Positions 42,233 through 47,114 of a DNA stretch of 64,000 bases are shown piece by piece. A program made the translations under genes and the position numbers. Where the stretch lies: the NCBI GenBank assembly GCA_014799805.1, contig JAAVHJ010000010.1:110652-174651 (forward strand), in the 5' to 3' direction. Under the pieces are notes generated by a model, which searched no databases, was not told where the DNA came from, and saw only the letters and a list, made by a program, of their open reading frames with translations. Source of the stretch: Ruminococcus sp. Lineage in GTDB: Bacteria > Bacillota > Clostridia > Oscillospirales > Ruminococcaceae. Each line of letters begins with the position of its first letter. Positions within the stretch are counted from its first letter, which is position 1.

Positions 42233-43627
42233 ATGCAAGAATCAAAACAAGAATTACAAGAAAATTCTAGTTCTGAAATTTTTAAACAACAAGTAGGGAA
42301 ATTTATCTGGACATTTCTTACCATTGCCGCTGCGATTTTATTTTACTATTTAATTCAATATCTGGGGAGTATTTCTAAATTTTTTCTGTCTGTCATGAAT
42401 GGAATCAGCCCTGTTATATGGGGCTTAGTACTTGCGTATTTACTTGAGCCAATCTGCAATTTCTGGGAAAGAAATTTACTCTCATGGCGTTTGCCAAAAA
42501 GCAAAAATCCTGAAAAAACTATGAAAAATATCCATGTTGCTTCAGCGATTTTAATGGTAATTTCTGCATTTGCAATCATTGCATTGCTATTATTATTAAT
42601 CGTTCCAGAAATTTATAATAGTATTACTGGAATTGGGAAAACATTACCATCACAAATAGAAAATATTTCCGATAGTCTTAAAAATAAAACTTTTTTTGAT
42701 AATTCTAACTCAATTGGTTTATATGCAAATAATGCATTATTAAGCATATTTAAATCTGTTGAAAAATGGTTAGTATCTTCTGACTTGCCATCACAGGCAC
42801 AGAAAATTATTAATTATTTTTATACAGGTGTCAAAAGCGTTTTTAATGTCGTATATAATTTAGTCGTTGGCTTAATTTTATCTATGTATATTATGATTGA
42901 CAAAGAAAAATTATTTCGTCAAATCAGAAAAATCACATATAGCATTTTTTCTGTAGAAACGGCATCAAGAATGCGTCGTATGATTGGGAGAGGTAATCAG
43001 AAATTCAGCTCTGCGATTCGTGGCAAAATTATTGATTCTATGATTATTGGTGTCATTTGTTTTGTATTATTAACAATTTCAAATCTTTTACCATGGTTTG
43101 CATTTCCGTATCCAGTTTTGCTTGCTGTAATTGTAGGCTTAACAAACGTTGTGCCGTTTTTTGGGCCTATTGTTGGTGCTTTTATCACAGGTGTTCTTGT
43201 GTTATTTGATAATCCTAAAATGGTAATTCCGTATGTGATTATTATTGTTATCCTGCAACAGTTTGATGCAAATTATTTAGACCCACACTTAGTTGGCGGT
43301 TCTATCGGATTAAAGCCATTCTGGTCAATTTCAGCTGTTTTGCTTGGAAGTACAATTTTTGGTGTGCCAGGATTTATTATTGGTCCTCCAGTGGTTGCTT
43401 TTATTTATGAAATTGTCAGTGAATGGACAGATGACAAACTTAGAACAAAACATCTTGCAGAAGAATTTCATATTCCACCAGAAGAAGATTTTGAAAATTT
43501 TTCTGAATCAAATAATGCTTATCGCATACAACAACAAAACGGATTTGAGAAAAAATTGAAGCATTCTATTAAAAACGCTGGAAATAAAATTTCTTCTCTT
43601 GTTCAGAAATTAAATCAGAAAAAATAA
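42233..43627 (+). CDS. AI-2E family (PerM-like) permease
   Basis: Multi-TM; LGSTIFGVPGFIIGPPVVAFIYEI; VPFFGPIVGAFI. Confidence 0.9.
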   Translation: MQESKQELQENSSSEIFKQQVGKFIWTFLTIAAAILFYYLIQYLGSISKFFLSVMNGISPVIWGLVLAYLLEPICNFWERNLLSWRLPKSKNPEKTMKNIHVASAILMVISAFAIIALLLLLIVPEIYNSITGIGKTLPSQIENISDSLKNKTFFDNSNSIGLYANNALLSIFKSVEKWLVSSDLPSQAQKIINYFYTGVKSVFNVVYNLVVGLILSMYIMIDKEKLFRQIRKITYSIFSVETASRMRRMIGRGNQKFSSAIRGKIIDSMIIGVICFVLLTISNLLPWFAFPYPVLLAVIVGLTNVVPFFGPIVGAFITGVLVLFDNPKMVIPYVIIIVILQQFDANYLDPHLVGGSIGLKPFWSISAVLLGSTIFGVPGFIIGPPVVAFIYEIVSEWTDDKLRTKHLAEEFHIPPEEDFENFSESNNAYRIQQQNGFEKKLKHSIKNAGNKISSLVQKLNQKK

Positions 43628-43678: not shown

Positions 43679-43710
43679 AATGAATTTTATTTCTGCTTAT
43701 GGACTATTTT

Positions 43711-43955
43711 TGCAAACAAAATAGAAATGTTCCACGTGGAACATTCTTGCTAATAAAATAGAATTGTTCTCGAACGTTTTCGCCAACAAAATAGAAATGT
43801 TCCACGTGGAACATTTTTGCTAACAAAATTGAATTGTTCTGGAACATTTTCGCCAGCAAAATAGAAATGTTCCACGTGGAACATTTTTGCTAACAAAATA
43901 GAATTATTCTGGAACATTTTCGCCAACAAAATAGAAATGTTCCACGTGGAACATT
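43711..43955. repeat. Tandem array (70-bp period) of alternating full and collapsed parS-like palindromes
   Basis: TGTTCCACGTGGAACA at 43728-43743, 43798-43813, 43868-43883, 43938-43953 (exactly 70 bp apart); collapsed sites TGTTCTCGAACG 43765-43776, TGTTCTGGAACA 43835-43846, TATTCTGGAACA 43905-43916 (also 70 bp apart). Confidence 0.95.
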
Positions 43956-44025: not shown

Positions 44026-44529
44026 TTACAAATCACAGCCAATTTGTGCAAGTATGTTCCATGTTTCACAGTCAACTGTACCTGTTACTGGCAATGCACA
44101 CATTTTTTGGAAAATTTGTACAGCTTGTTCTGTTTGAATATCATATTCCCCTGTGACTTGCACATCAGGGACATTTGTATATTGTTTTGAAACTGAAAAT
44201 AAAATCGCTTGAATAATAATGACTGTAAAACAATCATCGCCAGAACGTACAACCGTATTTCTATCTTTAAAAGCATTTAACGGCTTTGGTGCAGTATCGA
44301 CAAAGCTTTTATATACAGTCACAATTTTTTTCCAAGTCGTTTCATTGACTTCACCTGTCTCTGTGAGACCATAAATTTTCTGAAAACTCTTGACAGCTTG
44401 TATTGTCTTGCTATCATAAACACCATTTGGAATCATGGGATTAATTCTGGTATCATAACAAGAAATAACATATAAATATCTTTGTAATTCCTGAATATGT
44501 AATTTTTTCTGTTCTTCAGTGTAAGCCAT
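44026..44529 (-). CDS. Protein with two peptidoglycan-binding-like (PG_binding_1) repeats
   Basis: YDSKTIQAVKSFQKIYGLTETGEVNETTWKKI; YDIQTEQAVQIFQKMCALPVTGTVDCETWNIL. Confidence 0.88.
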   Translation of the reverse strand: MAYTEEQKKLHIQELQRYLYVISCYDTRINPMIPNGVYDSKTIQAVKSFQKIYGLTETGEVNETTWKKIVTVYKSFVDTAPKPLNAFKDRNTVVRSGDDCFTVIIIQAILFSVSKQYTNVPDVQVTGEYDIQTEQAVQIFQKMCALPVTGTVDCETWNILAQIGCDL

Positions 44530-45970: not shown

Positions 45971-46960
45971 TTAGACTGGTTCAGCCTGTGAGGGCAATTC
46001 AATTGTTTCTAAATCTTCACTAATTGCTAATGGCAGTGGTATCATTTGAAATACTTGTCTTGATGTGATTCCAGCAAATATCGGAACATCTTTTGCTTCC
46101 TCTCTGAAATAACCGCTTGCATAAATTTTGACATTATAAGTTGCATAGGGTTTTATATTTTCAGGCTCTTGTGATAAATTCGCAGGCGGTGCAGGCAAAT
46201 TTACAACGGGAGTCAAACCGCTTTCATCTGTTTTTAAAATATAATTCAACATTGTTTTGCCATCAATCTGGCTATAAATTGTCACTCTTGCATCAGGTAC
46301 AGGATATGCACTATCTGCTGTTGAGGCAACAATATAAAGTTTTCCTTCAGCAGTGTTGCGTTGTTCATAAGCTTCTTGTGCAGTCCATTCCTTTGGCAAA
46401 ACAGGCTTGACTGGTTGGATATAGTCTGGCAAAACAGGTTCTTCGTATTCAATAACTGGCTCTGGTTCTAATTCAAGTTTTGGCTCTGGGATTAATACTT
46501 CTGGAGCGGATTCTCCATGAATTTCTGTTATATCTGGTTCCATAGGTTCTGCCATGACAGATATTATTGCAGAATCTTGTTCCGAATTTTCTAATATATT
46601 TCTTGGTTGTGGTGGCTGTGGATTGATTGGTTTTTGTGGCGGTTGCGGATTGATTGGCTTTGGTGGCGGTGACGGATTGGTTGGCTTTGGTGGCGGTGAC
46701 GGATTGGTTGGCTTTGGTGGCGGTGATGGATTGGTTGGCTTTGGTGGTGGTGACGGATTGGTTGGCTTTGGTGGCGGTGATGGATTGGTTGGCTTTGGTG
46801 GCGGTGATGGATTGGTTGGCTTTGGTGGCGGTGACGGATTGGTTGGCTTTGGTGGTGATGGCGGATTTGGGGGTTTTGGGGGCGAAGTTGGTCTATTACT
46901 ATACATTCTTAACATTTCTTCACGGTATTTTTTCGCAAGTTCAGATAATGAATCTGGCAT
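45971..46960 (-). CDS. Pro-rich repeat protein with C-terminal carboxypeptidase-regulatory-like beta domain
   Basis: Seven KPTNPSPPP plus two KPINPQPPQ units; C-terminal KLYIVASTADSAYPVPDARVTIYSQIDGKTMLNYILKTDESGLTPVVNLPAPP; start at ATG behind GGAGG. Confidence 0.8.
   Translation of the reverse strand: MPDSLSELAKKYREEMLRMYSNRPTSPPKPPNPPSPPKPTNPSPPPKPTNPSPPPKPTNPSPPPKPTNPSPPPKPTNPSPPPKPTNPSPPPKPTNPSPPPKPINPQPPQKPINPQPPQPRNILENSEQDSAIISVMAEPMEPDITEIHGESAPEVLIPEPKLELEPEPVIEYEEPVLPDYIQPVKPVLPKEWTAQEAYEQRNTAEGKLYIVASTADSAYPVPDARVTIYSQIDGKTMLNYILKTDESGLTPVVNLPAPPANLSQEPENIKPYATYNVKIYASGYFREEAKDVPIFAGITSRQVFQMIPLPLAISEDLETIELPSQAEPV
46607..46860. repeat. 27-bp coding tandem repeat (Pro-rich)
   Basis: Seven copies of GGATTGGTTGGCTTTGGTGGCGGTGAY plus diverged flanking copies. 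Confidence 0.9.
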
Positions 46961-47114
46961 GCATATAACCTCCTTTTCTAATGATTCTGACAAATTATAT
47001 GCCTGATTTCTAAATTCTATGCTAATTTTTCTGCTAACTTGACAAATAGAATCACAAGTATTATAATATTTATTGAAATATATGCAAAAATTTTAATAGA
47101 AAGGATTGATTCAC

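What the first reader, a model, noticed from the sequence alone, without database searches (positions are those of the whole stretch)
43711..43955. Higher-order array of four perfect parS-like palindromes alternating with three 'collapsed' sites
Direct observation: TGTTCCACGTGGAACA occurs four times at exact 70-bp spacing (43728, 43798, 43868, 43938). Sites 2 and 3 extend to a 22-bp palindrome AAATGTTCCACGTGGAACATTT. Between them, also at 70-bp spacing, are three copies of the same flanking unit (GCYAACAAAATAGAA...) in which the core is TGTTCTGGAACA or a variant, i.e. the palindrome minus CACG. Unit lengths fit: about 37 bp full plus 33 bp collapsed = 70. Established: the Firmicutes parS consensus for ParB/Spo0J is close to TGTTNCACGTGAAACA. 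Inference: this is a clustered ParB-loading region that expanded by duplication of a full+collapsed dimer, or a repeat family that grew from parS. The 4-bp loss changes half-site spacing and should abolish or alter ParB binding, so collapsed units may act as spacers or decoys.
Basis: partly seen in the sequence, partly recalled or inferred. Interest (0 to 1): 0.8.

Follow-up and report, generated by a model that had tools for sequence, protein, structure and literature searches.

The report
Duplicated tandem array of parS sites
This is a short tandem array of the DNA sites (parS) where a bacterium's chromosome-segregation protein ParB is expected to load; it lies near the replication origin, is copied a second time beside the parAB genes, and in both copies every second site has decayed.

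Summary
Four perfect TGTTCCACGTGGAACA sites lie at exact 70-bp steps, alternating with three copies of the same repeat whose core has lost about 4 bp. Genome-wide the 16-mer occurs 16 times exactly, plus four near-copies, all on one contig within a 48-kb region beside dnaA that holds parA, parB and a noc-like gene. They are almost certainly real chromosomal parS sites, not a scattered repeat. A second array, outside the window, sits between noc-like and parA: six parS at 69-bp steps, again alternating with collapsed cores. Its spacers are about 68% identical to the first array's, so one was probably copied from the other. A close relative has an all-intact array of five parS at 37-bp steps, with noc on one side and this window's right-hand neighbour gene on the other, as an inversion between the arrays would give. 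Most congeners have a single parS or a close pair at noc-parA. The collapsed cores are not Noc sites and are not enriched elsewhere; decayed repeat units is the best reading. New variant of a known kind (ParABS): tandem parS arrays behaving like a small bacterial satellite repeat. ParB binding was not tested.

The parts
43706..43955 (.). Array 1: tandem parS array, dimeric higher-order repeat of 70 bp (37-bp full unit + 33-bp collapsed unit)
   Evidence: TRF period 70, 3.6 copies, 93% matches; the repeat finder D1
43728..43743 (.). parS site 1 (TGTTCCACGTGGAACA)
43798..43813 (.). parS site 2 (inside a 22-bp perfect palindrome)
43868..43883 (.). parS site 3 (inside a 22-bp perfect palindrome)
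43938..43953 (.). parS site 4
43765..43776 (.). collapsed core 1 TGTTCTCGAACG (no GTTCCAC half-site on either strand)
43835..43846 (.). collapsed core 2 TGTTCTGGAACA
43905..43916 (.). collapsed core 3 TATTCTGGAACA
42233..43627 (+). left neighbour: membrane protein of the YtvI/AI-2E exporter type, 464 aa; its 3' end faces the array
   Evidence: none of the 29 relatives' loci inspected has parS or the right-neighbour gene next to it
44026..44529 (-). right neighbour: small protein with peptidoglycan-binding-type domains, 167 aa; next to the array here and next to noc-array in relative G031

Best explanation
Array 1 is part of the chromosomal centromere of this rumen Ruminococcus-like bacterium: a cluster of four intact parS sites about 57 kb from dnaA, one end of a field of 16 exact (about 20 in all) parS sites around parAB and noc. 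Proposed action (inferred from established ParABS biology): ParB dimers load at each intact 16-mer, close as CTP clamps, slide onto neighbouring DNA, recruit SMC and engage ParA, so the array is a strong extra loading point on the origin-side arm. Proposed origin (inferred): a close parS pair in the noc-parA gap gave a tandem array of ~37-bp units by slippage or unequal crossover. One unit lost bases at its palindrome centre. The intact+collapsed dimer then spread through the array, and a copy was seeded at the second locus. The collapsed cores have lost the half-site and the half-site spacing and are most likely inert spacers.
For: Shown: 16 exact and 4 near sites, all at C10:154379-202383; ParB_N genes among them; gene order mnmE-mnmG-rsmG-noc-like-array 2-parA-parB-serS, with dnaA-dnaN-recF-gyrB-gyrA beyond; GC skew and gene strand flip at dnaA. 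ParB aligns to solved ParB/Spo0J proteins with the parS-type residues R173 and G201. The second array has the same full/collapsed alternation; spacers 68% identical, z 4.5 against shuffles. Within-phase spacer identity exceeds between-phase in both arrays (0.91-0.97 vs 0.79; 0.95-0.98 vs 0.89). In array 1 the four intact cores have 0 of 16 variable columns, the collapsed cores 3 of 12. G031 has five intact or near-intact parS at exact 37-bp steps with homologous spacers. Most congeners with this parS type have only one site or a close pair (25-45 bp) at noc-parA.
Against: No ParB binding data. The genome is a draft of 88% completeness and the relatives are mostly metagenome assemblies. Core-versus-collapsed variability rests on very few copies and is not significant alone. 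In array 2 four of the six intact sites carry 1-2 mismatches, so constraint there looks weaker. The direction of change (37-bp array to 70-bp dimer, or the reverse by homogenisation) is inferred.
Confidence: 0.87

Rival explanations
1. The collapsed cores are functional: binding sites for the second ParB-family protein (noc-like), so each array alternates ParB and Noc sites.
For: The paralogue next to array 2 has Noc-type specificity residues (Q173, K179, R184, R201 by alignment with the solved Noc), and B. subtilis-type Noc sites are absent from this genome, so its true site is unknown.
Against: Known Noc sites are 16-bp palindromes with the same half-site spacing as parS. Collapsed cores differ between the two arrays (12 bp TGTTCTGGAACA; 11 bp RRTTTRAARYA). 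The exact 12-mer occurs once elsewhere in the genome. G031, whose noc-like protein is 99% identical, has no collapsed units in the array held.
Confidence: 0.05
2. The collapsed units are neutral in sequence but useful in length: they hold intact parS about 70 bp apart and so tune ParB loading density.
For: Both arrays keep strict alternation and nearly constant length (70 and 69 bp) despite sequence divergence.
Against: Constant length is expected from recent tandem duplication of a dimer. G031 and arrays in other genera keep intact parS at 37-38 bp, so 70 bp is not required.
Confidence: 0.15
3. The palindromes are transcription terminators or RNA hairpins at a convergent gene junction rather than ParB sites.
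For: Each intact 22-mer can fold into a 9-bp hairpin (-6.5 kcal/mol as DNA); four terminator-like minus-strand calls fall on the four sites; the array lies between convergent genes.
Against: The exact parS sequence is found at 16 oriC-side places, including gene starts, and nowhere else. Collapsed units do not fold stably. No Rfam match.
Confidence: 0.04
4. Generic interspersed repeat (REP- or MITE-like) that happens to contain parS.
For: The spacer sequence is itself repeated and present at two loci.
Against: Only two array loci in 2.48 Mb; single parS sites have unrelated flanks; no phage or plasmid match.
Confidence: 0.02

Closest known systems
Myxococcus xanthus chromosomal parS cluster (22 parS in about 3 kb, 4 kb upstream of parA; PMC3899335)
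   Same: Dense cluster of parS repeats (consensus TGTTCCACGTGGAACG) near parAB and oriC; ParB shown to bind a consensus parS
   Different: Here two separate small arrays with a fixed 69/70-bp dimer period, alternating with decayed cores; homologous spacers; the arrays are linked to a probable rearrangement
Bacillus subtilis and Corynebacterium glutamicum parS (about ten 16-bp sites near oriC; C. glutamicum: ten in one 35-kb cluster on one side of oriC, PMC7083940)
   Same: Same 16-bp palindrome class, oriC-side clustering, one-sided as in C. glutamicum
   Different: Those sites are described as dispersed single sites, not tandem arrays
Noc and its NBS sites (PMC7383237)
   Same: The paralogue next to array 2 has Noc-type specificity residues
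   Different: The sites here are parS, not NBS; the known NBS consensus is absent from this genome

Membership tests
Chromosomal ParABS centromere (parS) | 16-bp palindrome matching the parS consensus | tested here: met
   Four exact TGTTCCACGTGGAACA; matches the M. xanthus consensus TGTTCCACGTGGAACG at 15 of 16 bases
Chromosomal ParABS centromere (parS) | Sites clustered near oriC, not scattered | tested here: met
   All 20 sites with up to 2 mismatches lie within 48 kb of C10 beside dnaA
Chromosomal ParABS centromere (parS) | parA and parB present, ParB with parS-type contacts (R173, G201) | tested here: met
   parA-parB adjacent; residues from the alignment to Caulobacter ParB, their meaning from PMC7383237
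Chromosomal ParABS centromere (parS) | ParB binds the site in vitro or in vivo | not testable with these tools
   needs ChIP-seq or gel shift
Collapsed cores as parS or half-parS | Contain the GTTCCAC or GTTTCAC heptamer (half-site described in PMC7022226) or the 16-bp spacing | tested here: not met
   Cores are 12 or 11 bp and lack the heptamer on either strand
Noc-binding site (NBS) | Matches the TATTTCCCGGGAAATA-type palindrome | tested here: not met
   Only 2 places with 2 mismatches in the whole genome, none in the arrays
Interspersed repeat (REP or MITE) | Many scattered copies across the genome | tested here: not met

The most novel reading that the evidence does not exclude
parS arrays in this family behave like a miniature bacterial satellite centromere: ParB sites are held at a preferred ~38-bp step, expand from a close pair at noc-parA into tandem arrays, evolve in concert as higher-order repeats, and recombine with a second array to invert the ~46-kb origin-side segment between them.
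Probability: 0.3. Interest if true: 0.65.

Novelty: new variant of a known kind. Interest (0 to 1): 0.45.

Why it matters
parS is usually discussed as dispersed single sites. Two homologous arrays in one chromosome, with site decay in every second unit, an all-intact version in a close relative and pairs in other species, give a natural series for asking how many ParB loading sites a centromere needs, whether their spacing matters, and how bacterial centromeres grow, decay and cause rearrangements. In vitro, ParB condensation force rises with parS number, with 5-7 sites as a minimum (PMC8299390), so array size should have a measurable effect.

Tried and rejected
(1) Generic repeat or mobile element: no phage or plasmid match and no scattered copies. 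(2) Collapsed core as a separate regulatory motif: one further exact copy in 2.48 Mb, and one-mismatch hits spread across many contigs. (3) B. subtilis-type NBS: absent. (4) Known RNA family: none. (5) Promoter inside array 1: one weak hit outside the array, fewer than in shuffles. (6) Confirming the inversion by its reciprocal junction in G031: its assembly (79% complete) holds neither parA nor the AI-2E-type gene, so it could not be tested. (7) Helical phasing of close parS pairs: there is a peak at 36-40 bp and small groups at 28-29 and 45-49, but most pairs lie at the same noc-parA locus, so common descent is not excluded. (8) Literature searches for tandem parS arrays in this bacterial group found none.

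Full report
OBSERVATION. The four perfect 16-mers are at 43728, 43798, 43868 and 43938, exactly 70 bp apart. Chance gives 0.21 hits with up to 3 mismatches in a window of this composition. Between them lie three copies of the same flanking unit with a shortened core: TGTTCTCGAACG (43765), TGTTCTGGAACA (43835) and TATTCTGGAACA (43905). TRF reads the array as period 70 (93% matches) and also as 37/33.

WHAT IT IS. In the host genome (2.475 Mb, 76 contigs, 88% complete) the 16-mer occurs 16 times exactly and four more times with 1-2 mismatches, all on contig C10 between 154379 and 202383 (window position = C10 - 110651). Within this field lie serS, parB, parA, a noc-like ParB paralogue and rsmG, followed by mnmG and mnmE, and about 10 kb from the noc-like gene dnaA, then dnaN, recF, gyrB and gyrA. 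GC skew and gene orientation flip at dnaA (C10 ~211 kb). Array 1 is about 57 kb and array 2 about 10.5 kb from dnaA. All sites found are on one side of dnaA, as reported for C. glutamicum (PMC7083940). The ParB aligns with solved ParB/Spo0J proteins and has the arginine and glycine (R173, G201 of Caulobacter) that PMC7383237 describes as conserved in ParB. The 16-mers are therefore chromosomal parS by every sequence criterion available. Binding is inferred, not shown.

THE SECOND ARRAY. Searching with the array itself found a second one at C10:200354-200724, opposite strand, in the noc-parA gap: six parS (two exact, four with 1-2 mismatches) at exact 69-bp steps, alternating with five collapsed cores of 11 bp (RRTTTRAARYA). 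Its non-parS spacers are 68% identical to those of array 1; mean alignment score 15.4 against -1.2 (sd 3.7, maximum 13.0) for 300 shuffles. AT-rich composition contributes: spacers of the more distant relative G027 score 11.6 against array 2. Homology is therefore likely rather than certain. Within each array, half-spacers in the same phase are more alike (0.91-0.97; 0.95-0.98) than those in opposite phase (0.79; 0.89), as expected when a full+collapsed dimer is the duplicating unit. A sigma-70-like promoter (TTTACA-17-TATAAT, 11 of 12) begins about 26 bp below the last parS of array 2, ahead of parA, so array 2 may also feed back on parAB expression (inference).

RELATIVES. The genus consists of uncultured gut and rumen Ruminococcus-like bacteria. 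In the 30 noc loci examined, two parS types occur by species group: TGTTCCACGTGGAACA in about half, TGTTTCACGTGAAACA in the rest. Most congeners of the first type have one parS, or two 25-45 bp apart, at noc-parA. The closest relative, G031 (noc-like 99% identical), has five intact or near-intact parS at exact 37-bp steps with spacers such as TTTTTGCAGAAATAATTATAA and no collapsed core. G027 (95%) has a parS array of 64-bp step upstream of parA at a contig end. So arrays expanded within this small lineage. Other genera of the family carry arrays of their own, for example five sites at 38-bp steps beside mnmG in G175.

A REARRANGEMENT. In G031 the array is flanked by noc on one side and by the orthologue of this window's right neighbour (44026-44529, 98% identical) on the other. 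Arrays 1 and 2 of the window's genome are in opposite orientation, so one crossover between them would invert the ~46 kb between and give exactly this junction. In the 29 relatives' loci of the left neighbour that I inspected, neither parS nor the right neighbour is adjacent; array 1 thus sits at a lineage-specific junction, and the coding strand switches there as well. The reciprocal junction could not be tested because G031's assembly lacks parA and the left neighbour. A chimeric metagenome contig remains possible.

THE COLLAPSED CORES. They lack the GTTCCAC heptamer that some ParBs bind as a half-site (PMC7022226) and, being 4-5 bp shorter, would turn the two half-sites by nearly half a helical turn relative to each other (inference from B-DNA geometry). 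They fold poorly where the intact site forms a 9-bp hairpin. The missing bases lie at the palindrome centre, a usual place for hairpin-related deletion (general knowledge; inference here). They vary more than intact cores in both arrays (3 of 12 vs 0 of 16 columns; 5 of 11 vs 3 of 16), though numbers are small. The exact 12-mer occurs once elsewhere in the genome. The noc-like paralogue has Noc-type residues (Q, K, R, R), but the collapsed cores do not resemble NBS and the G031 array lacks them. Decayed, passive units is the simplest reading.

SPACING. In 398 family genomes, 55 (31 of 126 genera) have two parS 24-54 bp apart. Counting each spacing once per genus, 31 of 60 fall in 36-40 bp (mode 38), against about 10 expected if uniform (binomial p about 2e-10; one spacing per genus, p about 1e-6 to 5e-5). 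The listing was truncated, so a few pairs are missing. Most pairs are in the noc-parA gap, so descent from one ancestral pair with conserved spacing is possible; that would itself suggest constraint, since the intervening sequences have diverged. The 37-bp unit of the arrays falls in this range, which suggests the array grew from such a pair.

MECHANISM. Inferred from ParABS work: each intact parS catalyses CTP-dependent ParB clamp loading and sliding; in vitro condensation force rises with parS number, with a minimum of 5-7 sites (PMC8299390). Array 1 would be an extra nucleation zone about 46 kb from the parAB zone, comparable with the separate ParB nucleation zones seen in C. glutamicum (PMC7083940).

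VERDICT. The kind is known (ParABS; M. xanthus has a 22-site cluster, PMC3899335). The variant is new as far as the searches here show: two homologous higher-order parS arrays, decay of alternate units, an all-intact version in the nearest relative, and a probable array-to-array inversion.

Noticed in passing
G000:C10:200726-201562 (L046:14723-15562, minus strand): Noc-like ParB paralogue with Noc-type specificity residues (Q173, K179, R184, R201) in a genome without B. subtilis-type NBS; it scores below the NCBIfam Noc cut-off (290 vs 315 bits). Its DNA site is unknown. Present in all 12 good-quality genomes of the genus.
   Followed up: partly
genus-wide noc loci L092-L121: parS differs between species groups of one genus: TGTTCCACGTGGAACA in one set, TGTTTCACGTGAAACA in the other.
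   Followed up: partly
L046 single parS sites (e.g. C10:187025, 187349, 191863): Several dispersed parS are flanked by A-runs and T-runs, giving perfect inverted repeats of about 30 bp that also look like bidirectional terminators.
   Followed up: no
L046:14310-14726 (+): A 138-aa open frame runs through array 2 (69 bp = 23 codons, repeated MFHVEHSNYF); probably a spurious product of the repeat, since array 1 and the G031 array have periods not divisible by 3.
   Followed up: no
L105:327-1129 (G028): Another tandem amplification: parS inside a ~203-bp repeat, five copies, between rsmG and noc in a congener.
   Followed up: partly
window 46620-46867: 27-bp tandem repeat (9.2 copies, 93% matches) within the proline-rich frame 45971-46993 (minus; PSPPPKPTN repeats).
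   Followed up: no
L046:9335-11077 (minus strand): Secreted glycoside hydrolase with a dockerin-like stretch (GDVNNDGVVDVKDVKYLQDYL), suggesting a fibre-degrading, possibly cellulosomal, gut bacterium (by eye).
   Followed up: no
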